A DNA stretch of 22,631 nt from a virus: IMG/VR virus record IMGVR_UViG_3300034198_023315, positions 1-22,631 of that record; one strand, given 5' to 3'. Position numbers and translations under genes: made by a program. The notes under the pieces are model-generated. The model searched no databases and had not been told where the DNA came from. It worked only from the letters and a program-made list of their open reading frames with translations. This document shows positions 4,672-20,988 of the stretch, one piece after another; within the stretch, counting starts at the first letter, position 1; every line of letters starts with the position of its first letter.

Positions 4672-4943
4672 AAACCAAGAAATTAAATTATAATTTTCCT
4701 ATAGATGAGATAATTGAAGGAAATCTTTCTGTACAAAGTATACAAAAAAGCTTAAAAGATAACTTTGGAATTTTAAAACCAAGTTTAACCACCTTTAAGA
4801 ATCCCAATTTTATTAAAAATTATCAAAACTGGGATGATAACAAAAAACATCAATTTATTAAAACAATTGGTGGAGTAGTTTACTATGGTAAAATTAAAAA
4901 TTATTTACAAGATTTAGTTAATAATAATGGAGAAAAAATATGA
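4668..4943 (+). CDS. Small basic protein of unknown function in the chaperone region
   Basis: This 91-residue protein is Lys- and Asn-rich, with a short PIDEIIEGNLSVQSIQKSL segment near the N-terminus and a helical C-terminus. It overlaps both the gene before it and the gene after it by ATGA (4668-4671 and 4940-4943), so all three are probably translated as a coupled set. I do not recognise a family. A role in tape measure folding or tail initiation is plausible from position only. Confidence 0.6.
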   Translation: MKTKKLNYNFPIDEIIEGNLSVQSIQKSLKDNFGILKPSLTTFKNPNFIKNYQNWDDNKKHQFIKTIGGVVYYGKIKNYLQDLVNNNGEKI

Positions 4944-5695
4944 AAACAATGTTTGAATTCGATATCTATCAAGAAAAGGAAATTGAAAAAGTAGATGTTT
5001 CTACTAATGAAAAAGGCGAAGAAGTAAAAGTTACTTCCAAGGTTAAAACGACCGTTCCAGTTAAGTTAGCTATCAAAAAACCAACAAGAAGTTTATTTGA
5101 TGAAGCAGAGTTATTTTATGGTGTTAGACTTTCAGAAGGTATTAAAGCTGGACTATTAACTCGCGCTTTATTAGCTAAAAGATTTAATAATGATGGCGGA
5201 GTTCTAAGTGATGAAGAGCAAAAAGAGTATAATGATCTATATTTGGAATTCTTTAATTTACAAACTGAATTTCAAAGATTGTCTATTAAGGAAGAAGCTA
5301 TTAGAACAGAAGAAGAGAAAAAGCAAATTCAAAATGTTATTGAAAAAATGAACATTTCAAGAGAAAGACTTCAAAGATATGAAATGGCTCAAGCTAATCT
5401 TTTTGAACAAACCGCAGAGAATAGAGCGAGAAATAAGACTATTATGTGGTGGGTTCTTCAACTTAGTCTTATTCAAGGCGATGATAAAAAATTCAAAGAA
5501 TTATTCCAAGATGGAAATTATGAAGATAAGCTTAAAAGATATGATGAAATTGAAGAATCTGAATCTGGAGTAGAAAAAATTGCTATACAAAAACTTCTTT
5601 ATTTGATTAGTTTTTGGTATATTGGTAGGGCTGCTTCTCAAGAAGAATTTGAAAAACTTCTTAATAATTTACAAAGTAGCGAAACAAAAGAATAA
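4940..5695 (+). CDS. Putative tail assembly chaperone-region protein
   Basis: This 251-residue protein has an N-terminal beta segment (residues 1-45), a conserved-looking motif (KKPTRSLFDEAELFYGVRLS, about 48-67, then AGLLTRALLAKRF) and a long charged coiled-coil-like stretch (about 90-160). The C-terminal helix contains WYIGRAASQEEFEKL. It is translationally coupled to the gene before it. Its position before the tape measure gene suggests a tail assembly chaperone. The next gene is in the same frame but is separated by three in-frame stops (5693, 5702, 5705). I saw no slippery heptamer at the junction, so a lambda G/GT-type frameshift fusion is not supported here. Confidence 0.55.
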   Translation: MKTMFEFDIYQEKEIEKVDVSTNEKGEEVKVTSKVKTTVPVKLAIKKPTRSLFDEAELFYGVRLSEGIKAGLLTRALLAKRFNNDGGVLSDEEQKEYNDLYLEFFNLQTEFQRLSIKEEAIRTEEEKKQIQNVIEKMNISRERLQRYEMAQANLFEQTAENRARNKTIMWWVLQLSLIQGDDKKFKELFQDGNYEDKLKRYDEIEESESGVEKIAIQKLLYLISFWYIGRAASQEEFEKLLNNLQSSETKE

Positions 5696-5707
5696 AAAGG
5701 ATAATGA

Positions 5708-6718
5708 TTGCAAACTTTAGACAAAAACAAATTACGGCTTTTGTTTATTGATATATTAAAGGGTTATTCTTTATCTTATTATAAGAGCAATAAATTATAC
5801 TTCAAGCATAATACTAGTTTTGATTCGGGTGAAATAGATTATTTAAAGCAAGAGTTTATAGAGAAAGCCAAAAGAAATGGTCTTCCAACAGAAGATCAAA
5901 AAGAAGAGTACTTGATTTTAGAAGGTATTTGGTCTAAAGAAAATAACGAAAAAATTAAAAAATTAAAATCTGACATATCTACTCTTAGGCAAACTAAATC
6001 TAAATTATTTAAAAGTGATGATATAAATGAGTTTAATAGACAAATTGACCAAAAAAAATTAGAGTTAATAACTTTAGCTGTAGAAAGAAAAGATCTTCTA
6101 GGTTTTACTGTGGAAGATTACGCTAATAAAAAAATTAATGAATATTATATGTTTAACTCATTATTCAGAGATAAAGATTTAAAAGATAGATATTTCTCTG
6201 AACAAGAATTTGATGAATTAGAGAATAAAGAAATATCAGAAGTACTAGAAATTTATAATAATATAAATAAAAATTTTATAGAAAATAATCTCAAGAAAAT
6301 AGCTCTTTCAGCATATTATCTAAGTTTATTTAACCTTTGTGATGAAAATGCTTATAATTTATACGGAAAACCAATTATATATTTAACGTTTTATCAAATG
6401 GAGGTATTTGGATATGCTAGATATTTCAAAAATGCATTGTCTGAAGCTAAACATAAACCTAGTGATGAATATTATGAAGATCCAGATAAATTAATTGAAT
6501 GGCTTGAAAGTAGTAAGAACGTAGAAGAAGTTCTTAGTAAAAATGAAAATAATCAAAAGAAAACAGAAGGCGCAATTGCTACTTCTATAGTAGGTGCCAA
6601 AAAAGAAGATTTAGCTAAGATAGGTAAAGACGAAAATGGTATCAGTTTACATAAAGAAGCTCAGAAAAAAGGTGGAACTTTAAGCATGGAAGATTTAATG
6701 AAAATGCATGGAGCTTAG
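5708..6718 (+). CDS. Putative second tail assembly chaperone-region protein (TTG start)
   Basis: The best start is TTG at 5708, giving 336 residues. AAGGA at 5697-5701 sits six bases upstream, whereas the nearby ATG at 5704 is in another frame and stops after 15 codons. No in-frame ATG occurs near the 5' end. The protein is strongly charged and helical, with a coiled-coil-like section at about residues 75-125, a helical core (about 170-245), and a Lys-rich tail ending in GGTLSMEDLMKMHGA. It lies directly before the tape measure gene, where chaperones that coat the tape measure protein are expected. I do not recognise a specific family. Confidence 0.6.
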   Translation: MQTLDKNKLRLLFIDILKGYSLSYYKSNKLYFKHNTSFDSGEIDYLKQEFIEKAKRNGLPTEDQKEEYLILEGIWSKENNEKIKKLKSDISTLRQTKSKLFKSDDINEFNRQIDQKKLELITLAVERKDLLGFTVEDYANKKINEYYMFNSLFRDKDLKDRYFSEQEFDELENKEISEVLEIYNNINKNFIENNLKKIALSAYYLSLFNLCDENAYNLYGKPIIYLTFYQMEVFGYARYFKNALSEAKHKPSDEYYEDPDKLIEWLESSKNVEEVLSKNENNQKKTEGAIATSIVGAKKEDLAKIGKDENGISLHKEAQKKGGTLSMEDLMKMHGA

Positions 6719-6779: not shown

Positions 6780-9700
6780 ATGGCTAGGACTTCAGCTTCA
6801 ATTTCAGTAGGAGCGGATACAAGGCAACTCGAAAGAGACATTCAGAGCGCCTTGGCGCGTGATTTTAAATTCAAAGGATTGAATGAAAAAGCCTTTACTC
6901 AACCCCTAGGGCGAATTACTGGTGCATCTAATGAGTTTCAAAAATCGCTAGACGCTTCAAATGCTCGTGTTATTGCTTTCGGAGCCAGTGCTGGCTTAAT
7001 ATATAGCGTAGAGAAGGCTTTCTCGTCTTTAGTAAGAAGTACTATAGATGTAGAAAAATCATTAACTGATATTAATGTTATTTTGAATGTGAGTTCAAAA
7101 TCTTTAGCGGCTTTTGGCGGTGGTTTATTTAGTATTGCAAAAGACACCGCTCAGTCTTTTGATACAGCTGCTCAAGCTGCAACTGAATTTTCGCGTCAAG
7201 GTTTAGGTCTCGAAGAAACACTTAAAAGAACAAGAGACGCTCTTATATTAACTCGTCTAAGCGGATTAGATACTGTGGCTTCAGTAGAAGCATTAACTGC
7301 CACAATTAATAGTTTTAGTAATGCAGCTTTAGATTCTACCGCAATTATCAATAAATTAGCAAATGTTGATGCTGCATTTGCGGTGAGTTCTGCTGATCTC
7401 GCAGAAGCTATTAAAAGAGTTGGAAGCTCTGCTCAAGATGCTGGTGTTGATTTTGATGAATTATTAGGTATTGTTACCAGCGTACAGCAAACAACTGCTA
7501 GAGGTGGTGCTGTTATTGGTAACTCACTAAAAACAATATTCACAAGAATACAGAGAACAGATACTTTAGACCAACTTGAGCAATTAGGCATTCAAGTAAG
7601 AACATTAGAAGGAAATACTCTTCCAGCTATCCAAGTTCTAAATAATTTAGCTACAACGTTTAATCAGTTGAGCGATGGTCAACGTGCTCAAGTAGCAGAA
7701 ACTGTTGGAGGCGTTTTTCAAATAAACATTTTAAAAGCAGCTTTGTCAGATTTAGGTAAAGAGTATTCGGTTTATAATAGAGCTTTAGAGACTTCTGCTG
7801 GAGCAACAGATCAAGCTATAACCAGAAACCAGGCTCTAAATGAAACTTTATCAGCACTGATAAATCGTACGTTTGTTAATATAACTCAGCTTGGTGCAGA
7901 TTTTGGAAAAATATCTCTACAACCAACTTTTCAAAGTGGGCTTGAATTATTAAATAAAGGACTAGAATCCATCTCTTCAGACTCCCAAGGGATAGGAAGT
8001 AAAATTGCTAAAGGAATATTTGAGGGTATAGGCACTTTTGTGAGCGGTCCAGGAGCAATACTTGTAACTGCTGTATTTGGCAAATTATTTTTAAACTTAG
8101 CTAAGTTTGCTGGAGAATCTATAAAAGCTTTATTGAATTTAAATACCCAGTCGGAGCAACGCGCGCAAATACAAGCCAAAATAAATCAAGTATTGTCTCA
8201 AGAACCAGCGCTTGTTCAAGCAGTATTTAACAAACAAATAACCGTATTAGATGTAGAAAATAAAATTTTAAATATTATCCGACAACAAACAATAGAAAGA
8301 CAAAGAGCCGCGAGCATTGCCTCCACGCTAACTGGAGGACTAGTAGGAAAAGGGGTTACTGCCAAGGGAGGAGTATTAAAAGCTAAAAGCGGAGGATTTA
8401 TTCCTAATTTTGCTAGTTCAGAAATTTTAGGTGCATTAGCTGGTGGATACTCTCCTGGATATGTTCGTAAAATGAATATCCCTGGAGAAGGTTCTGTAAC
8501 TTATAATTCAGCAGAAAAAGTTAAAAAATTTCCTGGAATGAGTCAGCCAGCGATTATGCCTCCAATTCAAAGTGATGCTGGAAAAAATTATCAAAGTCAA
8601 TTTAATTCGGTATACGGCTTTAATCCATATGCAAGTAATGGATTTATACCTAATTTTGCAGATTATGTTATAAACAATAAAAGATTTTCTGCTTCTCAAA
8701 TTCCTTATGCGATTAAAACAAAAGCTATAACTCCAGAAGATGCAGCAAAAGCAGGGTATGTTAGATCTGATGTAAAGACTGCTCAAAGAAAAAGTAAGTC
8801 TGCATTAAATAAACCAACTCCACTGGATGTTAGTAGTATAGCTAGCGTATTATTGCCATTTATTGGATCTTCAAGAAAACTAGCTGGACCATTTTCTCCA
8901 AAAGGTAAATCTTCAGAATTTGCAATTACAAATGTGCCAGTTTATGGAATGAAAAAATCTGCTTTAGAAGGAGATTTAGCTGATGATAAAAGAAGATTAT
9001 TTACAAATATAACTAATAGTATTTTAGATAATACATCTGGTTTTATTGATACTTTAAAACCTTTAGGCAGAACTGTAAATAAAGGAACACTAGCTAGTGC
9101 ATTTTCTAGTTCTGGAGAAAAAGGCGCATATGGCGCAGTAAGAGGAGCAGTCGGTTCTGCTTTTGAAATTGGAGTGAAAACAGCATTAAATTATACGGCA
9201 TTAGATTCACAAAAAGGATTTGGAGATTTTGATGTTAGAGGTGGTAAAAATTTAAGAAATTTACAAAAATTATTTGGTTTTAGTACTGTTCTTGGAGATT
9301 TTAAAGGAAGTTTATCTAATGATAATTTACAAAGTTTTGCGAATAAAATCTATAAAGAAGTTGGAATGGGACAATTTGGAAGATTCAGTACAACCAAAGG
9401 TAAAAAAGCTTCTGGCGGATTTATTCCTAATTTTACAGCGTTAAATGATGCAATTGAAAGAGAAGCTGGCGCTGGAACTCCAATGTCAAGAATAAGAGTA
9501 GGTAAAGATTCTAGATTGACTTCTGCTTCGAATCCTCTCGGTTTAGGAGTTTATAATACAAAAGATGAACCAATGGGATTAGGTCAAGGTGTAGCAAGAT
9601 ATGGTTCAAGTAGAGCAAAAACTGCTGGAGCATCATCTGGATTTATCCCAAATTTTGTAAATATGCCATCAACATTTATGGGTGATCCAAACGCATTACA

Positions 9701-12700
9701 ATATCAAATAAGTGTATTGACGGAAACACAAAATAAATCAACAAAACAACTTATTAAAGATTTTAAAGATTTAAGTAGAGAAACAAAAAATGCGTCTAAA
9801 GGATTTGAAAGATTTGGTGGTGCTGCCCTAGCTTTTAGTTTTGGTTTACCAATAATTTTACAAACTTTATCTCAATTTAGTTCAAATGAAGATATTAAAA
9901 CTCAAGCTGCTATTGATGGAATAAGTACAGCTCTAAGTATGATAGGAACTGGAGCATTTGTCGGAGCTGGTATGGGAGCAAGGGGTGGTCTTTATGGTGC
10001 GGCTGCAGGGGCGGTTGTTGGTGGTGGAATAGGTGCTTATCAATTTTTGAAAGCTTTAAAAACAGAAGATCTAGTAAAACTTCAGAAAAATTTGCAATTT
10101 CTTCAAGATGAATTTCAATCTTCGCAATCTTCTTTACAAAAAGTTATTCCTCTTATTGAAGAATATAAGAGAGTCCAAGCTTCTGCTGCTGACGAACAAA
10201 CAAAAGCTTTTAATTTAGAAAAAATTGTAAATGAAATTTCTACTGGTCTTGGTCCTCTTGGAGAAGAGACTGTAAATCAAGTATTAGAAGCATTTAAAAA
10301 TGCAGATTATGATACTATTAGTTTGATTATTAATAAAAAATTAGCAGAAAGTAGCTCTAAACTTTCAAATGAAGGAGTTAGAATTTTATTAGAAGAATTT
10401 AAAACTAAGGGAAAAGTAATAGAAGATCCTACAACAGCTAAAGTTATAGGAAAAAGTTTATTATCTCTTCAAGAATCTACTGGAGAATCTGTAATAAGAA
10501 AATTAGCCGCAACAGAAGAAGGTAGACAAAGAATAGGCGCTGTTAGTAAAAGTTTAGAAAAATTATTAGAAGAAAGAACTCGATTAGAAACAGAACGAAT
10601 AGAAATGGAAAGAAAACCAATTCCAACGATAGCTAGAAAAAATGTTTTCGGTCCAGGTGGTGGTAGTGAATTACCTAGTTTTTCTGAAGGTATGGCTAAT
10701 TTTGATGAAGCTCCAACTACACCACGAATGCTAGAAGAAAAAGTAAAAAGTTTAAATACAAATTTAAATGATATCTTAAGCACTATTGAACCTCTTTACC
10801 AAGACGCAGAAGAAACAAGAGTAAAGTTTGCTGAATGGAGAATTGCTTCGGGTAGCACAGCTTTAAATCAAGAATCTAGTTCGGCTCTTATCGAGCAAAT
10901 TGTAAAAGATTTAAGATCTCAAGGAATTAGCACTAAAAAAATCGATGATATTCTTAAAACTAGCGCAATTGATAGTATTGAAGCTTACGTTCAAGCTTTT
11001 AGAAATAATACATTAACATTAAGAAAAGCCGATGAATTTGTTAAAAATACTTTATTTAAGAGATTGCAAGATCCTTTGGAAATTTTAGGCAAAGAACAAG
11101 GCGCATTAATACAAAAGATTGGAGAAGATATATTAACGCCATCTAGAAGAAATCGAGTATATGACGAAATAGATAAAGAAACAGAAAAACTTAGATCTCA
11201 ATTAAGTGACGAAACAATTCGAAGAGAAAGATTAGGCGCCCAGCTTGCAAATAAAGAAATAACAGAAGAGCAGTATCAAAAAGATATAGAAAAAACAATT
11301 ATTACCGAAGATCAATATAGGAAAAGATTAGAAGCTCTTCGCGAAAAGATATTATTAGACCAAAGAAAAGCTGGAGGGATATTTGCCGAAGACTTTAGAG
11401 GAGGAAGACAAGAGGCAAGAGAGGCTAGAATTCTTGGTCAAGAAACTCAATTACAAGATTTTGGTGCTTCATTTTTTGATCAATTTGATAATCGTGCTGA
11501 AGATTCATTTAGAGAGGCTCAACTTGGAGCAGCAGATACAGCAAGAACAATAAAGAGCGAATTTAATAATGCCTTTTTATCTTTTGCTAATGGAACAGCT
11601 ACTGCTAGTGATGCTTTTACAAGAATGGCTCTTAATATTAGCGATAAAATACAACAATTAGCTCTCGAATTTAGCACTAATTTAATTTTTGGAAAACTTT
11701 TTGGTAGTACAAGTAATATATTTGGAGGAGGTGGTGGAGGATTATTTGGAAGTTTATTTGGTAAATCAAAAGGCGGGTTAATTAAAGGTTATTCTACTGG
11801 TGGTAATGTAGTTGGTGGATCAGGAAATAAAGATGATATTCCAGCTATGTTGAGCGGTGGAGAATATGTTATTAGAAAGAGCGCTGTTAATAAATATGGT
11901 CAAGAATATTTGCAAATGTTAAATGAAGGAAAAGTCGAAAAACGTTCTGGTGGTGGATTTTTTGGTGTACTGGCTGCAATGGCCGCTCCTATAGTTGGTC
12001 AAAGTGCAGCAACAAACCCAACCGTTGGGTACCCAACCGCTACTTCTACAAGTATAGCTCCAACGTTTGGTATAAATGCAGATAAAAATAATTATTTTAA
12101 ATATGGCGGAAGAGTCCAAAGATTTGCATTTGGTGGAGAAACTCAATTTTTGGGTGAAAATGTATATAGATATAATGATCCTCTTTACCCAACTGCTGGA
12201 GAGAATATTATCGATCCAAGACTTGGTTTACAGGCTATTATTGATCCAAATAATCCCCAAAATAGAATAAGGCAAGAAAGAGAAATGGCATTATATGATT
12301 ATTTAAATTACGTAGCTGGAGTCAACGAATCAAATAGACAAGCACTGCAAGACAACATTAGAATGAATCAAGAAATTCAAGATCAATATAATCAACAAAA
12401 AAATGCAAAAAGTAGAGGTGCATATTATCAAGCTCTTTTGGGGGTTGGAGCTGCTGGATTAGGATTTTTAGCTAAAGGTGGAGAAGTTAGAAAATTTGCT
12501 TCTGGTGGAAGCAGCAAAGATGATATCCCAGCGATGCTTATGGGTGGCGAATTCGTAATGAGAAAAGAAGCAGTTAATATGTATGGCAAAAAATTCTTTG
12601 ATGATCTTAATTCTGGAAGAGCTAAAAAATTTGCAGATGGAGGAGCAGTTGGCAACGTTAGTGAAACAAATTCTAATAATTATTCTCCAACAAACAATGT

Positions 12701-12902
12701 AAGTGTTGTAGTTAATTTAAATCAAGAAGGGTCTACAACTGAAAATACTGAAACTAGTCAAACCGACAAACAGCAAAAAGACGCAGAAGAAACCAAAGAG
12801 CTTGCTGAAAAAGTAAAAACTCAAGTAATGAGGGTGATAACAGAGCAACAAAGACCTGGCGGATTATTGAGTTCAGCGGTTTATAGACAAGTAAAAAGAT
12901 AA
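6780..12902 (+). CDS. Tail tape measure protein with nuclease-like insert
   Basis: This 2040-residue protein is by far the longest in the window and follows the tube and chaperone genes. Residues about 60-380 form the helical tape-measure core (SASAD-type helices such as TAAQAATEFSRQGLGLEE and ARGGAVIGNSLKTIF). Hydrophobic segments lie at about 414-445, 1012-1033 and 1047-1093 and could enter the host membrane during DNA ejection. Four GFIPNF motifs start at Gly539, Gly621, Gly880 and Gly954. Between the second and third is a PD-(D/E)XK-like set: Glu796, Asp818, Asp840-x-Lys842 and Gln851. Residues about 1100-1650 are helical and charged. Two DDIPAML...GGE motifs follow at 1685 and 1914, and a helical tail ends near RPGGLL. 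The start is supported by AAGGA at 6768-6772. Confidence 0.92.
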   Translation: MARTSASISVGADTRQLERDIQSALARDFKFKGLNEKAFTQPLGRITGASNEFQKSLDASNARVIAFGASAGLIYSVEKAFSSLVRSTIDVEKSLTDINVILNVSSKSLAAFGGGLFSIAKDTAQSFDTAAQAATEFSRQGLGLEETLKRTRDALILTRLSGLDTVASVEALTATINSFSNAALDSTAIINKLANVDAAFAVSSADLAEAIKRVGSSAQDAGVDFDELLGIVTSVQQTTARGGAVIGNSLKTIFTRIQRTDTLDQLEQLGIQVRTLEGNTLPAIQVLNNLATTFNQLSDGQRAQVAETVGGVFQINILKAALSDLGKEYSVYNRALETSAGATDQAITRNQALNETLSALINRTFVNITQLGADFGKISLQPTFQSGLELLNKGLESISSDSQGIGSKIAKGIFEGIGTFVSGPGAILVTAVFGKLFLNLAKFAGESIKALLNLNTQSEQRAQIQAKINQVLSQEPALVQAVFNKQITVLDVENKILNIIRQQTIERQRAASIASTLTGGLVGKGVTAKGGVLKAKSGGFIPNFASSEILGALAGGYSPGYVRKMNIPGEGSVTYNSAEKVKKFPGMSQPAIMPPIQSDAGKNYQSQFNSVYGFNPYASNGFIPNFADYVINNKRFSASQIPYAIKTKAITPEDAAKAGYVRSDVKTAQRKSKSALNKPTPLDVSSIASVLLPFIGSSRKLAGPFSPKGKSSEFAITNVPVYGMKKSALEGDLADDKRRLFTNITNSILDNTSGFIDTLKPLGRTVNKGTLASAFSSSGEKGAYGAVRGAVGSAFEIGVKTALNYTALDSQKGFGDFDVRGGKNLRNLQKLFGFSTVLGDFKGSLSNDNLQSFANKIYKEVGMGQFGRFSTTKGKKASGGFIPNFTALNDAIEREAGAGTPMSRIRVGKDSRLTSASNPLGLGVYNTKDEPMGLGQGVARYGSSRAKTAGASSGFIPNFVNMPSTFMGDPNALQYQISVLTETQNKSTKQLIKDFKDLSRETKNASKGFERFGGAALAFSFGLPIILQTLSQFSSNEDIKTQAAIDGISTALSMIGTGAFVGAGMGARGGLYGAAAGAVVGGGIGAYQFLKALKTEDLVKLQKNLQFLQDEFQSSQSSLQKVIPLIEEYKRVQASAADEQTKAFNLEKIVNEISTGLGPLGEETVNQVLEAFKNADYDTISLIINKKLAESSSKLSNEGVRILLEEFKTKGKVIEDPTTAKVIGKSLLSLQESTGESVIRKLAATEEGRQRIGAVSKSLEKLLEERTRLETERIEMERKPIPTIARKNVFGPGGGSELPSFSEGMANFDEAPTTPRMLEEKVKSLNTNLNDILSTIEPLYQDAEETRVKFAEWRIASGSTALNQESSSALIEQIVKDLRSQGISTKKIDDILKTSAIDSIEAYVQAFRNNTLTLRKADEFVKNTLFKRLQDPLEILGKEQGALIQKIGEDILTPSRRNRVYDEIDKETEKLRSQLSDETIRRERLGAQLANKEITEEQYQKDIEKTIITEDQYRKRLEALREKILLDQRKAGGIFAEDFRGGRQEAREARILGQETQLQDFGASFFDQFDNRAEDSFREAQLGAADTARTIKSEFNNAFLSFANGTATASDAFTRMALNISDKIQQLALEFSTNLIFGKLFGSTSNIFGGGGGGLFGSLFGKSKGGLIKGYSTGGNVVGGSGNKDDIPAMLSGGEYVIRKSAVNKYGQEYLQMLNEGKVEKRSGGGFFGVLAAMAAPIVGQSAATNPTVGYPTATSTSIAPTFGINADKNNYFKYGGRVQRFAFGGETQFLGENVYRYNDPLYPTAGENIIDPRLGLQAIIDPNNPQNRIRQEREMALYDYLNYVAGVNESNRQALQDNIRMNQEIQDQYNQQKNAKSRGAYYQALLGVGAAGLGFLAKGGEVRKFASGGSSKDDIPAMLMGGEFVMRKEAVNMYGKKFFDDLNSGRAKKFADGGAVGNVSETNSNNYSPTNNVSVVVNLNQEGSTTENTETSQTDKQQKDAEETKELAEKVKTQVMRVITEQQRPGGLLSSAVYRQVKR
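8388..8414 (+). repeat. GFIPNF motif, copy 1 (tape measure protein)
   Basis: This site encodes SGGFIPNFA with Gly539 as the first residue of GFIPNF. It marks the start of a low-helix, Gly/Pro-containing region that interrupts the helical tape measure protein. Confidence 0.8.
8637..8660 (+). repeat. GFIPNF motif, copy 2 (tape measure protein)
   Basis: This site encodes NGFIPNFA at residues 620-627, 82 residues after copy 1. It lies just before the segment that carries the nuclease-like motifs. Confidence 0.8.
9411..9437 (+). repeat. GFIPNF motif, copy 3 (tape measure protein)
   Basis: This site encodes SGGFIPNFT, with Gly880 beginning GFIPNF. It closes the nuclease-like segment, 259 residues after copy 2. 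Confidence 0.8.
9636..9662 (+). repeat. GFIPNF motif, copy 4 (tape measure protein)
   Basis: This site encodes SGFIPNFVN, with Gly954 beginning GFIPNF. Copies 3 and 4 enclose a short module with REAGAG, SRIRVG and PLGLGVYN, after which the helical tape-measure pattern resumes. Confidence 0.8.
11832..11873 (+). repeat. DDIPAML motif, copy 1 (tape measure C-terminal region)
   Basis: This site encodes DDIPAMLSGGEYVI from residue 1685, followed by an AVNKYG stretch and a short LN-containing helix. The same module recurs 229 residues later. Confidence 0.75.
12519..12560 (+). repeat. DDIPAML motif, copy 2 (tape measure C-terminal region)
   Basis: This site encodes DDIPAMLMGGEFVM from residue 1914, followed by AVNMYG and a FFDDLNSG helix. 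The match to copy 1 covers about 40 residues, showing an internal duplication. Confidence 0.75.
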
Positions 12903-12903
12903 T

Positions 12904-14319
12904 TTATAATATTAATTTTGCTGAAAAGTTGATTAAATCTTTATCTGATATAATTTGAGATTTATTTATAGAAGGATTTTCATTTAAATATTCATTTAAA
13001 TTTCCTAAATCATAAGAATATTTGAATAATAATGTAATATAATCTTTTCCATCAATATTTGTTTTATATTTTTCACTATATTTTAAATTATTACTTGTTT
13101 CTATATAGAACTTCTCATTATTATAAAAAGTGGTTATAAATTCGATATAAATATTGCAAGTATCGCTATTTTCTTCGATTTCAATGATTTTGGCTTGAAG
13201 TACTCCTTGATTTTGAAGGTAATCTAAGTCAATAGCTACGTCTTCATAGGAGGCTAAGTCTTTGCTATAAAAGCCTAAATATCCCTTTTGTAAGTTATAA
13301 TTATTGTCAAGTACATCGTCTGTATTTAAATCATTAGATAAACATATAGTTTTGTTGATTTGATCTTTGTTTAATAATGGAAAATAGCTATTAAATACCA
13401 TATCATTAATTGATAAATCTGAAATTAAACTGTTTGAATTTAAGCTTTGATTATTGAATAAATATAAATAATTTTGATAAAACGCCAAGGTTTCGTTATT
13501 TACAGATTGTTTATATATTTTGCCAATATTAAATGTTTGATTAGGAAAATACTCTTCATATAAATTATTAATATCTTCCTGAGATTCTCTTGGTCTTAAA
13601 AAGTTATATAATTCTGATTGAAGGTAATTAAGTGGAATAATTTTAATATTTAAATTTTCAGATATCTCAACAATATCACTTTCAATAAAAGGTATTGTTA
13701 GTAATGCGGTTGAATCGTTAACATCAAGCCATTTTTCTTCTACTCTTTCGGTGAATAGATTTGTTAATTTTTTATTTTTAACTAACTTATTAGAAACTTC
13801 ACTTAATACAAGTAAAGAATGTATTTCTTGTTGTTTAAAATATTCTTTATCTAAAAGTAATTTCACGCTAATATAATCGCTACTACGGTAAATTTTATTA
13901 AATAAAATACTTTTATTCAAATTTTCAATTTCAGCATATTCAGCCTTTAGCTCAAAATCGCCTTTACCATCATTATTGTAATCTACTTCAAATTTTATTT
14001 TTTTAAAAAAACCTAATTTATTATTTAATTCTTTATATTTTAAATAATTATTTTCAAAATTATATTTAAAAATATTTTTAGTTTTATTTTTAGAAATCTC
14101 TACACTAAGCTTTGGTTTAAGCATAAAATCTTCATATTGAAGATTAGACTCCATAATAAATTCATGATTATTTAAATTTAAATTTTGATGAATAAGATAA
14201 TCATTTTCATTTTTTACTTTTACATTGTAAGTTGGAAACTGCGTATCAATTTTTAAAAAATCAGGAATATTTCTGATAGTTTGCCACTCTAAAGTTAAAT
14301 TTAAATTTTTTACTTTCAT
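12904..14319 (-). CDS. Distal tail-tip protein with N-terminal FN3-like domain
   Basis: This 471-residue protein is the last gene of the minus-strand tip operon and begins 3 bases after the J-like stop. Residues about 5-75 look like a fibronectin type III strand pattern (LNLTLEW, then FPTYNVKVKN). Residues 113-123 form an Asp/Asn/Gly loop, DYNNDGKGDFE, similar to calcium-binding loops of EF-hand or dockerin type. The rest is Asn-, Leu- and Ile-rich and I recognise nothing further. Because the J-like protein also ends in FN3-like sequence, this may be its distal extension encoded as a separate protein, perhaps contacting the receptor. Its stop codon lies one base from the tape measure stop on the other strand. 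Confidence 0.65.
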   Translation of the reverse strand: MKVKNLNLTLEWQTIRNIPDFLKIDTQFPTYNVKVKNENDYLIHQNLNLNNHEFIMESNLQYEDFMLKPKLSVEISKNKTKNIFKYNFENNYLKYKELNNKLGFFKKIKFEVDYNNDGKGDFELKAEYAEIENLNKSILFNKIYRSSDYISVKLLLDKEYFKQQEIHSLLVLSEVSNKLVKNKKLTNLFTERVEEKWLDVNDSTALLTIPFIESDIVEISENLNIKIIPLNYLQSELYNFLRPRESQEDINNLYEEYFPNQTFNIGKIYKQSVNNETLAFYQNYLYLFNNQSLNSNSLISDLSINDMVFNSYFPLLNKDQINKTICLSNDLNTDDVLDNNYNLQKGYLGFYSKDLASYEDVAIDLDYLQNQGVLQAKIIEIEENSDTCNIYIEFITTFYNNEKFYIETSNNLKYSEKYKTNIDGKDYITLLFKYSYDLGNLNEYLNENPSINKSQIISDKDLINFSAKLIL

Positions 14320-14322
14320 AAA

Positions 14323-17300
14323 TTAATAAACATTTGTACCAGAAGCTTGAACGCTGAAAACAGAAGCTTGATTGGTTAGATTGTATGATCCATTGAGCGC
14401 TGGAGTTCTTTCTCCGATATTATTTTCAGCGAATATTCTAAAATAATATGTGCCAGCACCAGTTGGTGTTATAAATGCTGGTATAGTGCCTATAGACCAA
14501 TCGAATCGACTTAAACCAGTTCTAAGTGTTGAAGGAGATATTGCATCAAATAAAAATGATTCTGGAGTTACAGTTGCACTTGTGAAATCAGAAAATGGTT
14601 TTATATATACATAATATAGATTATTACTTGCATTATTTGTTGGTGGTTGTATATTATACATTACGCTGTTAATTCCGCCTTGATTAGTAGTATAATGTGT
14701 TCCTGCTGGATTACTTAGATAAGAATTAGTAATAGGATCTCTAAATATTCCACTTAAAAATAAAGTAGGAGCAACTGGTGCAGCAGGTCTAAGTGGTACG
14801 TTAACTAAATCATTTACATTGTCAATATCTGCATATTTTTGATCATTATATTCAAGAGCGTTAACATTAAATATTTCTGGTTCTTTTTCTGTAATGGTTA
14901 ATACTCTATATTTTTTAGGTTTATTAAGAAATGATTCTAGGTAATATCCTGGATACAAGGCTCTGCCTTCATTGTTCATCTCAGACCTAGTATTAATTCC
15001 TGCTGTTGCATATCCAGAAGTATTTATATCTATATTCCAAACTGTGTTTTGCGGTAAACTATAACCGCTAACTATTAAACCGCTTGGAAAATTAAGTCTT
15101 ATATTATTAGAGTATATTCCAGATCCACTAGTTAAATAATTTTGTGGACTATTTATTTTAATAGATTGCAACTGACTTCTTCTAAAGAATGAACTATTTA
15201 ATCCTGTAACTCCAGAAGATGTAATATTAAAACCAGTAATATACAAGTCTCCAAGTTGTGTTCCAGGATTTAAATTATAAGTTGGAGTTAATATATTAAA
15301 TACAAATGAATTATTCATATTCGCACCAGTAATTGCGTATGTATTAGTAAAATTATATGGAGTATCTAATACTGCGTATCCACTAGTTAGCTCTAAAGTT
15401 CTTCCTGCGTAAGATTGATTTTTTCTATATTGATCATAAATTGAGATAACATCCCCTGGTCTTAAATAATTACCCTCTAGACCAACTTGAAAATCAACTA
15501 ATTCTGTTTCTGTGTTTTGAGTAGTTAAAAGCCATTTGCCAATTCTTTTTGCTTGACTACTGCTTGTGCAACCAAATGCAACAATTTCTGTTTCTCGTAT
15601 TCCATATTTTAATATTGAATTTTTGTCTTCTACGTATTCAATTGCTGGTTTAAAATTATCATTTTTATCATTAAATCTTACAGATGCTACTGTTTTTCTT
15701 GACTTTTTAGAAGCATCAGAATAATTGAATGTTCCTTCTATAACGCTACTATTATTAAAAAGATATATAGGCTCTTTTAATGAATCTTGAGATACAGTTA
15801 TTTGTCCAGCTGAATAATATACGATTGCTCTAAAAATGCTTGCCATATCGTTTAAAACTTTATAGGCTTCTTCTTTTGTATTAATATATAAATTACAAGT
15901 AAATCTAGGCTCCAAACCTCCAAGACCATCGGATACAAGTTCATCGCAATATTGACCAATTTCATATAAAGTCCATTTATCTGTTAAACTAGAATCAATA
16001 AATTTTCCTAATCCAAATCTATTGTTTATAATTAAATCATAAAAACACCAAGCTGGGTTATCAGTCCATGCAATTTTAAATTTTCCATTCCACGGACCAG
16101 TATAATTTCTAGCAACTGGATCATAATTTACTGGTATCTTAACTTTCAATAATCTTAATTTATATGTTCTCGTTGGAATATCATTAAAATATCTTGCATC
16201 AAATTTAGAATAAACTAAAGCAGTATCTGGATAAACAAAACGATCTGAATAAACTTCAGTTATACTATCTATTGATGTAGAGTTAAAAAGTCCACCGCCA
16301 GTGCTTTCTCTTGTTTTTTTAACAAGGTCTATAGCCCAACCAATTTGATTTGGAAAGATTTCAAACCAAGGAGTATTTTCTGCATAAGGTCTTAATGTTA
16401 TTTCATATGGAACTATTACTGGGCTATTAGCTATTTTTCCTTGGAGTTGAATAGTATCGATTGAATATCCTTCTCTTAAATAAGGTCTATATTTAGATGT
16501 ATCTAATAATATAAGACTATTATCTGAAAGAATTCTGTATATTGCAAATGTAAAAACTCCAATTTGCGGTTCAACATCTCCAGCGTTTGCTCCAGTTAGT
16601 ATTTGCTCATATAAACTGTTTATTTTTATATTTATTTTAAGTGATGAAACATCAGTGTTGTATACATAATAAGTTTTTGGTGTTAATATTTGAGTTCCAG
16701 TTAGTTGATAAAATCCATATAAAGTTTCATTTATACTTTTTGTTATTGAGGTTTGTAATGGTATTTTGTTTTGATCTACTTGTTTGCCAAAGTAATCTCT
16801 TCTTTCTTCATAAAGATTTAAATATGGATTATAAACTGTATGATCATTTGTTTTTTCGCCATATGTATATTTATAATTTACATATTGAAAATTATAAAAT
16901 CCTGCAAGATCTGTAATTGGAGTATCATTCCAAAATATTGATCTGGTTTCTGGATTACTGTAAGTTTGTTCATATGGTTGAAATCTAACACTAGTGTATC
17001 CTATATCTCCAATTGATTTTCCACTTAAATTTGGAATATATAATCCACTAACAAATCCTTCAATCGGACCCTCGCAAACTAAATCTAATACATTAATTTG
17101 ACCAATAGAAGTATATGCTCTTTGATCTTTGAATCTTTGAGTTAAACGTACTCCGTTAGTTTGTGGATCAGTTCCCGCTTCTACTGAGGCGACCGTACTC
17201 ACACCAAAAATAGTTTGTAAATCTGGCGCGCCAAAAGTATTCGCCCTAAAGAGTGCGCCATCTGCAGGGCTTCCATCTCTAGTACTAAATTTTTGAATAT

Positions 17301-17556
17301 TAGCCCCAGTCATTACAGCTAATACAGTATGCCTTGCAAGAAAACCACTTGGACCCCTACCATAAATATTTGGTGCGCCTGGATTAGAAGTCGGAACAGG
17401 TAACGCTGTACCACTAAAGCTTAAACATAAATTACCACCACCTACATCATCTTGAGCCGTGCTTTCTGGAAAATTATATCCACATACTCCTTGACCAACG
17501 TTTCCAGGAAATGCAAGGTACTGTAAACCATCTGCGTATTTATTTGGATTTCCCAT
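14323..17556 (-). CDS. J: Tail tip attachment protein, J-like (host specificity)
   Basis: This 1077-residue protein has the central tip layout of lambda gpJ: a segment near residue 155 with GQINVLDLVCEGPIEGF, and a core from Trp497 (WTDNPAWCFYDLIINNRFGLG). It then has a YKVLNDMASIFRAIVYYSAG stretch with the SQDS and beta-rich elements that follow it in this family. The C-terminal 150 residues (about 915-1070), with RPAAPVAP and YYFRIFAENNIGERT, resemble one FN3 domain. It follows the I-like gene with 4 bases between them, as in lambda. Its role is the central tip hub and receptor recognition. An N-terminal extension of about 150 residues, rich in Gly and Pro, precedes the conserved part. The start has no clear Shine-Dalgarno sequence. 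Confidence 0.9.
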   Translation of the reverse strand: MGNPNKYADGLQYLAFPGNVGQGVCGYNFPESTAQDDVGGGNLCLSFSGTALPVPTSNPGAPNIYGRGPSGFLARHTVLAVMTGANIQKFSTRDGSPADGALFRANTFGAPDLQTIFGVSTVASVEAGTDPQTNGVRLTQRFKDQRAYTSIGQINVLDLVCEGPIEGFVSGLYIPNLSGKSIGDIGYTSVRFQPYEQTYSNPETRSIFWNDTPITDLAGFYNFQYVNYKYTYGEKTNDHTVYNPYLNLYEERRDYFGKQVDQNKIPLQTSITKSINETLYGFYQLTGTQILTPKTYYVYNTDVSSLKINIKINSLYEQILTGANAGDVEPQIGVFTFAIYRILSDNSLILLDTSKYRPYLREGYSIDTIQLQGKIANSPVIVPYEITLRPYAENTPWFEIFPNQIGWAIDLVKKTRESTGGGLFNSTSIDSITEVYSDRFVYPDTALVYSKFDARYFNDIPTRTYKLRLLKVKIPVNYDPVARNYTGPWNGKFKIAWTDNPAWCFYDLIINNRFGLGKFIDSSLTDKWTLYEIGQYCDELVSDGLGGLEPRFTCNLYINTKEEAYKVLNDMASIFRAIVYYSAGQITVSQDSLKEPIYLFNNSSVIEGTFNYSDASKKSRKTVASVRFNDKNDNFKPAIEYVEDKNSILKYGIRETEIVAFGCTSSSQAKRIGKWLLTTQNTETELVDFQVGLEGNYLRPGDVISIYDQYRKNQSYAGRTLELTSGYAVLDTPYNFTNTYAITGANMNNSFVFNILTPTYNLNPGTQLGDLYITGFNITSSGVTGLNSSFFRRSQLQSIKINSPQNYLTSGSGIYSNNIRLNFPSGLIVSGYSLPQNTVWNIDINTSGYATAGINTRSEMNNEGRALYPGYYLESFLNKPKKYRVLTITEKEPEIFNVNALEYNDQKYADIDNVNDLVNVPLRPAAPVAPTLFLSGIFRDPITNSYLSNPAGTHYTTNQGGINSVMYNIQPPTNNASNNLYYVYIKPFSDFTSATVTPESFLFDAISPSTLRTGLSRFDWSIGTIPAFITPTGAGTYYFRIFAENNIGERTPALNGSYNLTNQASVFSVQASGTNVY

Positions 17557-17560
17557 AAAC

Positions 17561-18325
17561 TTAAAAAGCTAAAGCTTGTAAAGCTTCTTGACTTATTAAC
17601 TGACACCTAGAGTTAAATAAATACTGAGCATTTCCTGCATTATTAATTTGTAAAGTATTTGTATCAAAATTACCAGCATATGCTCTATAAACAATTTCAT
17701 AACTACTAAATACATTATTACCACCAACGATTAGCTCTCCATATCCTATTGGGACTGGACCACCTTCTCCTACGGTGTTTACTGGACCATTAAAAAGATA
17801 AGAGGTTGGTCCTCCAGCTTCACCCTGTCCATCTATTGGATTAGTTTGTTGAGCGGTAAAAGGAACAGATGGTGGGGGTTTTGATAATAATTCACTCGTT
17901 CCTGCTGCAATTAAAGCTAAACCAGCAAATCCAATAGCTACAGCTGGTAAAATAAATGGCGTAAATACAGCGACCGCTACCGCTGCAACAATTAGAGCTG
18001 CTCCTACGAATATTTTCCCAACTCCTCCAGAGCCTATAACAGAAGGGACAATATCTATTGTTTTTATTTTATCTTTAATATCTAAACAGAATTCAGAATT
18101 TTTTAATTCATTTATATCTTTAAACTCAGGAGATTCATCAAAAAAACTATTATTATCTGCTAAAATCTCATATTCATATTGATCTTTATTATATAATAAC
18201 CAATGTCTTAATTTTTTAGTATTTATATCTATAGCGTGCAAAGCTTCTGCCACAGAAGAAACATCTAATTCCCATGTTTCTCCCAAGTCTTCACCCAATT
18301 TACCATGCAAATTTACTGTTATCAT
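17561..18325 (-). CDS. I: Tail assembly protein, I-like
   Basis: This 254-residue protein matches the layout of lambda gpI. It has an N-terminal beta-grasp-like domain (residues 1-92, starting MITVNLHGKLGE), a long Gly/Ala/Val hydrophobic segment (about 103-145), and a conserved C-terminal block, SYLFNGPVNTVGEGGPVPIG, at 175-194, followed by YGELIVGG. The hydrophobic segment may interact with membrane or pack inside the tip. It sits between K-like and J-like genes as in lambda, and its ATG overlaps the K-like stop by four bases (ATGA), so translation is coupled. Confidence 0.88.
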   Translation of the reverse strand: MITVNLHGKLGEDLGETWELDVSSVAEALHAIDINTKKLRHWLLYNKDQYEYEILADNNSFFDESPEFKDINELKNSEFCLDIKDKIKTIDIVPSVIGSGGVGKIFVGAALIVAAVAVAVFTPFILPAVAIGFAGLALIAAGTSELLSKPPPSVPFTAQQTNPIDGQGEAGGPTSYLFNGPVNTVGEGGPVPIGYGELIVGGNNVFSSYEIVYRAYAGNFDTNTLQINNAGNAQYLFNSRCQLISQEALQALAF

Positions 18326-19047
18326 ATTTTTAACCTAAAGATTGAATCTGTATGCCTTTTATAAAAATTACAATAATTTTCGATTCTTGAGAAACCAAAC
18401 ATAGGTTGATGTAAAATTTTATCTTGTCCCATATACAATGCGAAATGTTTTGGTTTATGATCTCCAAAAGCATCTATTAAAAGTATATCGTGCAATTTAA
18501 GATCGCTTTTATTTTCTATAAGTTGGAAATTATTATTCTTATAAAATTTATATAATTCTGTTTTTATATCCATTTGTTCTAATGATTTTGAATAAAAATT
18601 ATTATCATACTTGAATTCTATAGACTTTTCTTTTTTATAAAATTCTTCAATTAATCTAAAACAATCATATTTTCCATGTTGATAGAATCTTCCAATATAT
18701 TCTTTTTTTATACTTATTGGTTCATGAATTTTAAATATTTTTTTATTTAAATTATACATTATAATTGGTAGACATAAATTTTCAGAGCAAGAAATATCTT
18801 GTTCAGAAAAATTTTCATTATCATTTATATGGCTATGATAAATATAAAGAATTTGATCTGAATATTTTTTTATTTTAATATAATCCAAAGAAGATATCAT
18901 AAAATTTTCTTTTTTATTTTTTGCAATATTTTCACATGGCATGCATATAAAATTATCATTTTTAAGTACTATAAATCCACAAATTTCTTCTGATGGATTT
19001 TTTGAACATTCTTTTATAATAAAATTTTTATTTTTTTTATCAATCAT
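18322..19047 (-). CDS. K: Tail tip hydrolase, K-like (JAB/MPN plus NlpC/P60)
   Basis: Two domains are visible in 241 residues. The N-terminal domain is a JAMM metallopeptidase-like fold: Glu21 in EEICGF, then His71-x-His73, seven residues, Ser81 and Asp84, which matches the HxHx7SxxD zinc motif exactly. The C-terminal domain is NlpC/P60-like, with catalytic Cys129 in YDCFRLIEEFY, His201 in KHFALYMG and His213 in the ILHQ segment. In lambda-type tails this protein belongs to the tip and is thought to act on cell wall during entry. Both active sites look complete. The gene starts 2 bases after the L-like stop and overlaps the I-like gene by ATGA. Confidence 0.9.
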   Translation of the reverse strand: MIDKKNKNFIIKECSKNPSEEICGFIVLKNDNFICMPCENIAKNKKENFMISSLDYIKIKKYSDQILYIYHSHINDNENFSEQDISCSENLCLPIIMYNLNKKIFKIHEPISIKKEYIGRFYQHGKYDCFRLIEEFYKKEKSIEFKYDNNFYSKSLEQMDIKTELYKFYKNNNFQLIENKSDLKLHDILLIDAFGDHKPKHFALYMGQDKILHQPMFGFSRIENYCNFYKRHTDSIFRLKI

Positions 19048-19049
19048 TT

Positions 19050-20435: not shown

Positions 20436-20439
20436 AATA

Positions 20440-20988
20440 TTAAACTGGTACTTCTATAAGATTTAAATCTATTTTATAGTTATTATATGACACATAGGAA
20501 GAACCCCATTCTGGAGCAATAAATCTAGTAGTTAAATTTGTTGATGATTTTGAATAAATCGTAGGCAAATTATATACAAAAGATTCTTGGCCATTTCTTT
20601 GTTGTAAAAAATGCAGAATTGAAACAGTTTCTTTTTCACTTCTATTGTCAAGAACTAATGAAAATTCTATTAAATTATTATTTATTCCATCATTAATTCT
20701 TTGTTCGTATCCATTTCCAAATTTATTTACTTTAATTCTTGGTTTAGTATTAATTTTTGCATCATAAGAAGGTTTCCACCAAAAATTAGGATATAATACG
20801 CTATTTAAAAGAATGTATCCATCCCAATCAAGTTGAAGATTCTCAGGAGTTACTGGATTATTCCCAGCCCCTGCATTAGAATCTATTATTGAATAATAGT
20901 ATTTTCCATCACTACCTAACACTATATCGTACTTGTTATAAGTACTCCCAGAATTCCAAGATGGAACTGTATCAAAAATACTAGCCAT
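20440..20988 (-). CDS. M: Minor tail protein, M-like, with N-terminal CBM-like module
   Basis: The C-terminal part of this 182-residue protein (about 67-182) carries the family signature of lambda gpM: PSYDAKI, KPRIKVNKFGNGYEQRINDG and FLQQRNGQESFVYNL. A short N-terminal module (about 8-57) has the Trp/Tyr spacing of a CBM5/12-type carbohydrate-binding fold (PSWNSGSTYNKYDIV, YYYSI, DW). The protein is expected to form a ring at the tail tip below the tube. It is the first gene of the minus-strand operon. AAGAGG and AAAGG stretches upstream of the ATG could serve as ribosome binding sites. Confidence 0.85.
   Translation of the reverse strand: MASIFDTVPSWNSGSTYNKYDIVLGSDGKYYYSIIDSNAGAGNNPVTPENLQLDWDGYILLNSVLYPNFWWKPSYDAKINTKPRIKVNKFGNGYEQRINDGINNNLIEFSLVLDNRSEKETVSILHFLQQRNGQESFVYNLPTIYSKSSTNLTTRFIAPEWGSSYVSYNNYKIDLNLIEVPV

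What the first reader, a model, noticed from the sequence alone, without database searches (positions are those of the whole stretch)
9120..9345. PD-(D/E)XK nuclease-like domain embedded in the tape measure protein
Between the second and third GFIPNF motifs the protein stops looking like a helical ruler and shows an ordered set of catalytic-type residues. These are Glu796 in GSAFEIGV, Asp818 in GDFDV, Asp840-x-Lys842 in GDFKGS, and Gln851 after a short gap. The order E, D, D-x-K and a later Q is that of PD-(D/E)XK nucleases. Since tape measure proteins leave the tail with the DNA, a nuclease here could be delivered into the host at the start of infection, to cut host DNA or a competitor's. Alternatively it could act during assembly or have lost activity.
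Basis: partly seen in the sequence, partly recalled or inferred. Interest (0 to 1): 0.78.

Follow-up and report, generated by a model that had tools for sequence, protein, structure and literature searches.

The report
Nuclease-like module inside phage tape-measure protein
A virus of bacteria carries, inside the long protein that measures its tail, a module whose few invariant residues are those of a DNA-cutting enzyme, which suggests that such viruses may inject a nuclease together with their genome.

Summary
The residues named are real: E796, D818 and D840-x-K842 in a 2040-aa tape measure protein (TMP). In 121 related modules, five of 55 charged/amide positions are fully class-conserved: E796, D818, D/E840, K842, K/Q856; the next reaches 55%. 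This is the PD-(D/E)XK signature; Q851 is not conserved. A confident model (pLDDT 90.9, pTM 0.84) is alpha/beta, but no fold search matched: the motif is strong, the fold unproven.

The module is one of many in a "cargo bay" cut by GFIPNF motifs, starting at aa 509-652 in 142 of 143 TMPs, usually between hydrophobic segments. Of 78 bay-complete TMPs sampled by motif alone, 64 carry this family, 10 another E/D/(D/E)xK module (judged by eye), 4 neither. In 19 virus records the family lies only in TMP-sized frames; 793 genomes of two bacterial phyla gave no match. One pair of nine compared (window/L002) shows exchange of the bay: 88-100% DNA identity between flanks of 42-87%.

Best reading: a nuclease ejected with the TMP, acting at DNA entry. 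Delivery, substrate and activity are inferred.

The parts
6780..12902 (+). Tape measure protein, 2040 aa, no cysteine
   Evidence: PF10145 at aa 121-311, E 8.9e-28; TMP PHROGs; no Cys
8025..8081 (+). Hydrophobic, membrane-type segment upstream of the bay (aa 416-434)
   Evidence: Kyte-Doolittle, 19-residue window; one lies within 250 aa upstream of the bay in 78 of 79 TMPs
8394..8411 (+). GFIPNF motif 1 (aa 539-544), start of the cargo bay
   Evidence: first motif at aa 509-652 in 142 of 143 N-complete ORFs
8412..8639 (+). Linker module between motifs 1 and 2 (aa 545-620)
   Evidence: cluster of 41 segments of 76-135 aa
8640..8657 (+). GFIPNF motif 2 (aa 621-626)
8658..8759 (+). Small N-terminal mini-domain of the module (aa 627-660)
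   Evidence: pLDDT blocks 94-95 over its first 30 residues in model 1; its pattern is at the start of 8 of 580 segments
8817..9392 (+). Nuclease-like core (aa 680-871)
   Evidence: model 2: pLDDT 90.9, pTM 0.84; family alignment A4, 121 sequences
9165..9167 (+). E796, first catalytic-type residue, in a helix
   Evidence: 117 E + 4 D of 121; model helix 102-123, residue 117
9231..9233 (+). D818, second catalytic-type residue, just before a two-residue strand
   Evidence: 121 of 121; model residue 139, strand 140-141
9297..9305 (+). D840-x-K842, the (D/E)-x-K element, at the end of a strand
   Evidence: D/E 121 of 121, K 121 of 121; model residues 161 and 163, strand 159-162
9345..9347 (+).
   Evidence: 106 K + 15 Q of 121; model helix 168-183, residue 177
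9417..9434 (+). GFIPNF motif 3 (aa 880-885)
9435..9638 (+). Linker module between motifs 3 and 4 (aa 886-953)
   Evidence: cluster of 89 segments of 51-78 aa
9639..9656 (+). GFIPNF motif 4 (aa 954-959), end of the cargo bay; identity to L002 breaks here
9813..9869 (+). Hydrophobic, membrane-type segment downstream of the bay (aa 1012-1030)
   Evidence: within 250 aa downstream in 58 of 79 TMPs against 85 of 830 control windows

Best explanation
aa 680-871 of the TMP form a separately folding domain with an active-site signature of the PD-(D/E)XK type (E796, D818, D840-x-K842, K856), most likely a metal-dependent nuclease. It sits as a module, with GFIPNF joints, in a fixed cargo bay between two hydrophobic segments of the TMP. 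Shown here: the residues and their near-absolute conservation, the alpha/beta model, confinement of the family to TMP-sized frames in the records searched, the modular bay, and in one pair its exchange as a block. Inferred: the TMP is threaded unfolded through the tail tube, its hydrophobic segments insert in the inner membrane, the bay refolds on the far side, and the nuclease cuts host or rival nucleic acid where the phage genome enters, before any phage gene is expressed. Some relatives add other enzyme-type modules (acetyltransferase and others) to the same bay.
For: Signature: five of 55 D/E/K/R/H/N/Q positions class-invariant in 121 sequences, next 55%; full signature in 141 of 142. Model 2 puts E796 in a helix, D818 just before a short strand, D840 on a strand with K842 just after it, K856 in the next helix. 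Four other module clusters share only this catalytic half (hhalign single-comparison E 8.8e-8 to 8.8e-6). Another cluster (A5, 13 sequences) keeps E64, D101, (E/D)-x-K114 and K132, though 18 further columns are invariant there too. Prevalence: 64 of 78 motif-sampled TMPs. Confinement: 20 places in 19 of 20 virus records, all in open frames of 1762-3185 aa; 0 of 398 and 0 of 395 bacterial genomes. Bay position and flanks. Block exchange. Precedents: Tme, a TMP-related injection-system effector with endonuclease activity (PMC11126660, abstract and sections 10 and 12); the lambda TMP is labelled by proximity to ManZ during injection and associates with the host nuclease SNIPE (PMC13190303, passages).
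Against: No match to any PD-(D/E)XK structure by Foldseek (best E 1.6 in PDB, 1.2 in BFVD) or VIA-align (best Z 3.1 of 233 chains) despite a confident model; no convincing Pfam, PHROG, PADLOC or PDB-sequence hit. The model has a helix between the D818 and D840 strands and only a one-residue bridge between the E796 helix and D818, so the canonical core is not evident. Members were collected with a profile, which favours copies that keep the motif, and the K/R/Q class used for position 856 was set by me after seeing K and Q there. No virion, ejection or activity data were at hand, and how the phage DNA would escape is unexplained.
Confidence: 0.6

Rival explanations
1. The nuclease acts in the producing cell or on the phage's own DNA: during tail assembly, head-tail joining or genome entry it trims or nicks the leading DNA end, like a DNA-entry nuclease, rather than attacking host DNA.
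For: Near-universal presence in this TMP lineage (64 of 78, plus 10 with another such module judged by eye) suits a core step better than an optional weapon; the bay lies in the N-terminal half, and the N-terminal end is thought (recalled) to face the head and the DNA end. Tme's authors discuss a DNA-transfer role.
Against: Some modules sharing the bay look like host-takeover enzymes (GNAT E 7.2e-8; one SNase-like among 90 at E 1.9e-9; an ATPase match at E 5e-5 that is below Pfam's cut-off); four motif-sampled TMPs lack any such module by my reading.
Confidence: 0.18
2. The module is a selfish or homing-type nuclease that cuts TMP genes lacking it, which would explain the spread of the bay as a block; any effect on the host is secondary.
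For: The bay is nearly identical between the window and L002 while adjoining stretches are diverged; homing nuclease genes interrupt TMP genes in other phages (PMC10448857, passages).
Against: It is read in one open frame and no intein family is among the Pfam hits; a module that is not of this family was gained at the same kind of joint (161 residues in L023 against L020); no free-standing copies in 19 records.
Confidence: 0.08
3. The domain is an enzyme of another kind (or a binding domain) whose invariant E, D, (D/E)xK and K/Q serve a different chemistry; the resemblance to PD-(D/E)XK is convergent.
For: No fold match in PDB or BFVD for a model of pLDDT 90.9; the strand order is not clearly the canonical one.
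Against: The residue set, its order, the D/E and K/Q swaps and the 'GxxFE' helix are those of PD-(D/E)XK enzymes (recalled); several other bay modules show the same set.
Confidence: 0.12
4. It is an inert spacer or a degenerate nuclease that only lengthens the TMP.
For: It lies in a protein whose best-known role is structural.
Against: Invariance of exactly the catalytic-type residues although 114 of 120 relatives are only 13-41% identical to the window; no dead copy among 142 profile-collected members.
Confidence: 0.02

Closest known systems
PD-(D/E)XK (restriction-endonuclease-like) nucleases
   Same: Order E, D, (D/E)-x-K, then K/Q, with D/E and K/Q swaps; E in a helix, D-x-K at a strand.
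   Different: No convincing sequence or fold similarity to any held member; a helix between the D and D-x-K strands; lives inside a tape measure protein.
Tme, TMP-related effector of Streptomyces davawensis contractile injection systems (PMC11126660; abstract and sections 10 and 12 read)
   Same: An endonuclease domain carried by a TMP-related protein with predicted transmembrane segments, loaded in a phage-tail-like machine.
   Different: Tme's nuclease is EndA-like (DRGH, H-N-N) at the C terminus with an N-terminal DUF4157; the window TMP has no DRGH, its module is internal, and it belongs to a virus.
Polyvalent proteins (PMC5512222; passages read)
   Same: Several effector-type domains on one polypeptide thought to be delivered with phage DNA; DNases proposed to degrade host or rival DNA.
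   Different: The words 'tape measure' do not occur in the main text; here the carrier is the TMP itself, modules are cut by GFIPNF, and the commonest module is a PD-(D/E)XK-like domain.
Muralytic domains in siphophage TMPs (recalled)
   Same: Enzymatic domains embedded in a TMP.
   Different: Those act on peptidoglycan; here the residue set is that of a nuclease.

Membership tests
PD-(D/E)XK nuclease superfamily | Conserved E ... D ... (D/E)-x-K in order | tested here: met
   117E/4D, 121D, 79D/42E, 121K of 121
PD-(D/E)XK nuclease superfamily | Further Q or K in the helix after the (D/E)xK strand (in many, not all; recalled) | tested here: met
   K856: 106 K, 15 Q of 121, in the helix after the strand
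PD-(D/E)XK nuclease superfamily | Alpha-beta-beta-beta-alpha-beta core with the residues clustered | tested here: inconclusive
   Confident alpha/beta model, but no fold match and no coordinates to measure
PD-(D/E)XK nuclease superfamily | Profile link to a described family | tested here: inconclusive
   None convincing in Pfam (37 members), PHROGs and PADLOC (121 members each) or PDB sequences; the superfamily is known (recalled) for undetectable divergence
PD-(D/E)XK nuclease superfamily | Metal-dependent nucleic acid cleavage | not testable with these tools
   needs an assay
Siphophage tape measure protein | PhageMin_Tail/TMP homology, long ORF, tail-gene neighbourhood | tested here: met
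   PF10145 E 8.9e-28; phrog_4211 E 5.8e-47 and tail PHROGs 30, 31 and 32 in the neighbours
Tme-type CIS effector | C-terminal EndA-like nuclease with DRGH | tested here: not met
   no DRGH in P0001; the H-N-N motif was not tested as such
Tme-type CIS effector | N-terminal DUF4157 | tested here: inconclusive
   not among the three Pfam hits of P0001 at E <= 1
Polyvalent proteins | Several effector-type domains in one chain | tested here: inconclusive
   40 of 92 bay architectures have two or more non-linker modules; the window's bay holds one enzyme-type module plus linkers
Polyvalent proteins | Delivered into the host with the DNA | not testable with these tools
   no virion or ejection data
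Intein / homing intein | Splicing blocks around an endonuclease | tested here: inconclusive
   no intein family among the Pfam hits of P0001; no Cys in the protein

The most novel reading that the evidence does not exclude
A large lineage of phages uses its tape measure protein as a reloadable multi-enzyme carrier: a modular bay with GFIPNF joints at a fixed place between two membrane segments, nearly always loaded with a PD-(D/E)XK-type nuclease that occurs only there, plus optional further enzymes. After ejection the bay would be a membrane-tethered loop at the DNA entry channel, giving the phage enzymes in the cell before its first transcript.
Probability: 0.45. Interest if true: 0.9.

Novelty: new variant of a known kind. 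Interest (0 to 1): 0.8.

Why it matters
Tape measure proteins are usually described as rulers and entry channels. A near-constant nuclease-type module in a fixed, modular bay gives a testable case of a TMP delivering enzymes into the host, parallel to Tme in contractile injection systems. It also bears on TMP mosaicism: PMC10684548 (passages) reports that TMPs show mosaic signal but that no genuine recent case could be confirmed; the window/L002 pair is a candidate, with breaks close to GFIPNF motifs 1 and 4. The joints also mark where to look for, and test, other delivered domains.

Tried and rejected
Fold searches gave only unrelated rows: model 1 best E 1.4 and Z 2.6 of 73 chains; model 2 best E 1.6 in PDB, Z 3.1 of 233 chains, E 1.2 in BFVD. 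Profile A4 against PDB sequences gave four lectin/LS-24 chains at E 0.0018-0.022 and one proteasome chaperone at 0.42 (A2 gave similar lectin rows). The three alignments printed cover the GxxFE stretch and on to at most G833, without D-x-K, and a second FE repeat in each chain: rejected as chance. A1 gave one RTX-toxin chain at E 0.12: rejected. PADLOC and PHROGs gave scattered hits of one member each (best Cas4 E 0.0051; phrog_26403 E 8.6e-4, 25 of 72 families shown): not used. Pfam on A2: 17 families, one member each, best E 0.0045: not used.

Host: not found. tblastn of the domain and of parts of the TMPs of L025 and L086 against 50,697 phage records gave no match. The whole TMP matches 138 records; the 40 listed lie within aa 12-491. 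The J-like protein matches 1525 records, all below 60% identity, too broad to name a host. The motif in the genome collection: 13 stretches, one of them (L327, a 3960-base MAG contig) in a multi-motif ORF.

Against the exchange reading: of nine loci compared with the window by interval, only L002 has a bay much more alike than the stretch before it; for L003, L004, L020, L021 and L023 the bay is no more alike, L005 is mixed, and L001 and L137 are close throughout. The window/L002 pair is also near-identical at codons 1-40 and over most of codons 1561-2040, so the gene is a mosaic with several breaks. In L020/L023 identity does not break at the last motif but falls after about codon 1040.

Intein, helical ruler and dead nuclease were considered and set aside (see rivals). 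Activities of other modules read by eye (kinase, HAD, peptidase, ADP-ribosyltransferase-like motifs) are leads only: of ten segments tested, five (two of L109, L061, L044, L026) had no relevant hit, L027 had SNase at E 0.076, and the L047 ATPase match is below Pfam's cut-offs.

Literature: 'GFIPNF' in 0 papers; other searches. None of the titles or abstract beginnings listed describes a PD-(D/E)XK module in a phage TMP; the library holds only open-licence PMC papers, listings were capped, and most listed papers were not opened. Passages only were seen of PMC7824862, PMC12487901, PMC13190303, PMC5512222, PMC10448857, PMC10684548, PMC13232217 and PMC10240207.

Biases and dropped rows: the 142 rows count the window twice (also as L011). 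For A4 I passed 120 of 123 non-redundant hits plus the window (one L184 and two L223 segments left out); window and L002 in it are 98% alike. For A2 I left out L001, L002, L011 and L022 of 40 rows and trimmed L044 and L046. A3 holds 90 representatives from 289 unique segments. The 143 and 71 ORFs include repeats of one contig. In one search (77 of 92 with the module) some loci were found through the nuclease; one search drops these (69 of 85, or 64 of 78 without near-duplicates). The ten 'other module' TMPs rest on clusters picked by eye. The 20 records were picked by me from the loci.

Full report
What was checked. The window is a virus record of 22,631 bases, 30.3% G+C. The large ORF 6780-12902 (+) encodes a 2040-aa tape measure protein. 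No Pfam or PHROG family covers the region, and no phage record matches the domain by tblastn.

Relatives of the domain. Two scans of viral contigs gave 10 and 13 loci, largely the same contigs. Eight sequences aligned already showed FE, GDFDV and DFK invariant, but these were close (51-98% identical to the window). Of the 302 loci they added, some from one contig, 238 (102 of 120, 65 of 98, 71 of 84) lie in ORFs with at least two motifs. Cutting all multi-motif ORFs at the motif gave 580 unique segments. An iterated profile search found 141 segments of the window's family.

Conservation. In A4 (121 sequences, the others 13-98% identical to the window, 114 of 120 at 41% or less) the 55 D/E/K/R/H/N/Q positions fall in two classes: five are fully class-conserved (E796, D818, D/E840, K842, K/Q856) and the other fifty reach at most 55%. 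Of other residues G792 (121 of 121), F795 (109), F832 (99), G785 (87) and G833 (86) are the best kept. The set and its order are the PD-(D/E)XK signature (family knowledge, recalled), and the D/E alternation is where that family alternates. In the larger set 141 of 142 keep all five and the last has a gap at 856. A profile favours motif-keeping members, but main hits in whole records scored 65 to 153 bits, so a copy that had lost one residue should still be found; the absence of dead copies is informative.

Structure. Model 1 (aa 627-879, 37 sequences) had pLDDT 83.0 and pTM 0.67. Model 2 (aa 680-871, 121 sequences) had pLDDT 90.9 and pTM 0.84, with elements strand-strand-strand-helix-helix-helix(E796)-short strand(D818 just before)-helix-strand(D840, K842 just after)-helix(K856). 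But Foldseek and VIA-align gave no credible neighbour in PDB or BFVD. I could not read coordinates, so clustering is untested. I therefore say that it carries the PD-(D/E)XK signature and probably works like such a nuclease, and leave membership by fold open.

Independent support. Profile-profile comparison of A4 with other module clusters (the best 25 listed) gave four at hhalign probability 83-94% (single-comparison E 8.8e-8 to 8.8e-6); the fifth fell to 43%. The four align over 73-82 columns of the catalytic half and keep E (D in a member of one), D and D-x-K, with other N-terminal halves. Another cluster without detectable kinship (A5, 13 sequences) keeps E64, D101, (E/D)-x-K114 and K132, among 22 invariant columns. 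Reading cluster conservation by eye, several more show E..D..(E/D)xK.

The cargo bay. In N-complete ORFs the first motif is at aa 509-652 in 142 of 143 (repeats of one contig included; one outlier at 1480). The bay is 51-1007 aa long in 71 complete ORFs and the rest of the protein 1477-2547 aa. In 79 non-redundant TMPs a hydrophobic segment lies within 250 aa upstream of the bay in 78 and downstream in 58, but inside the bay in 6; control windows farther downstream had one in 85 of 830. In the window the segments are aa 416-434 and 1012-1030. GFIPNF is written with all four Gly and all four Pro codons, so the constraint acts at least partly on the protein.

Content. Among 85 bay-complete TMPs sampled by motif, 69 carry the window's family; of 78 after removing near-duplicates 64 do, 10 carry another module with E/D/(D/E)xK (clusters chosen by eye), and 4 carry neither. 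Among 90 representatives of the modules Pfam finds GNAT acetyltransferases (3 members, best E 7.2e-8), one staphylococcal-nuclease-like module (1.9e-9), one nucleotidyltransferase-related region (3.4e-8) and one HSP90/histidine-kinase type ATPase (5e-5, below Pfam's cut-off). Most of the 90 have no clear family.

Exchange. Window and L002 share 92-100% DNA identity over codons 541-860 and 88-92% over 861-940, but 60-87% over codons 41-540 and 42-69% over codons 961-1560. In protein, the bay intervals are 97.6, 97.7 and 91.9% identical against 80.9% before, and identity breaks right after motif 4. The pair is near-identical again at codons 1-40 and over most of 1561-2040, so the gene is a mosaic with several breaks. 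Of nine loci compared, L002 alone shows this pattern clearly. L023 carries one more module than its relative L020: 161 residues gained at motif 2, between intervals 98.8 and 90.8% identical. I read this as exchange of blocks at or near the joints, shown in few cases.

Confinement. Searching 20 whole virus records picked from the loci with A4 gave 20 places in 19 records, all inside open frames of 1762-3185 aa; the second place in G014 has the same frame length as the first. None of 398 genomes of one bacterial phylum and 395 of another matched; the virus records are the positive control. In held loci all 166 ORF hits lay in ORFs with the motif, though the loci were chosen around it.

Mechanism. 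Shown: a conserved active-site-like residue set in a confident alpha/beta domain, inside a TMP, in a modular bay between hydrophobic segments. Inferred: ejection, refolding, membrane anchoring and cutting. A folded domain of this size would not fit easily in a tail tube about 4 nm wide (recalled), so it should travel unfolded; the TMP has no cysteine, which fits. In lambda the TMP is labelled by proximity to the inner-membrane ManZ during injection, and the nuclease SNIPE associates with it (PMC13190303, passages), so TMP segments do reach the inner membrane. Tme shows that a TMP-related protein can carry an active endonuclease in a tail-like machine (PMC11126660, abstract and sections 10 and 12). 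The main gap is how the phage's own DNA escapes; timing, modification or substrate choice are all possible. The near-constant presence makes a general takeover or entry function more likely than an occasional weapon.

Verdict. It is a new variant of a known idea (enzymes delivered by phage structural proteins), with a carrier and a module family that I did not find described in the searches named.

Noticed in passing
window 12904-20988 (-): The tail-tip genes (phrog_31 J-like, phrog_32 and phrog_30) lie on the strand opposite to the TMP, unlike the usual co-directional tail operon (recalled).
   Followed up: no
window 12904-14319 (-): A 471-aa ORF directly convergent with the TMP has no Pfam or PHROG hit.
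   Followed up: no
window 4940-6718 (+): Two ORFs upstream of the TMP, where tail chaperones usually lie (recalled), are in the same frame and separated only by stops over about a dozen bases; readthrough or a separate start was not tested.
   Followed up: partly
L255:5593-10683 (-): The only N-complete multi-motif ORF whose first motif is far downstream (aa 1480 instead of 509-652).
   Followed up: no
L047:4352-6751 (-): An 800-aa bay module with a GHKL/HSP90-like ATPase match (E 5e-5, below Pfam's cut-off) next to the nuclease module in the same TMP.
   Followed up: partly
L223:202-6999 (+): A TMP whose bay holds two modules of the nuclease family in tandem.
   Followed up: no
window 8658-8759 (+): A small, confidently modelled mini-domain (aa 627-660) heads the module in some relatives and is replaced by other sequence in others; its pattern is in 8 of 580 segments.
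   Followed up: partly
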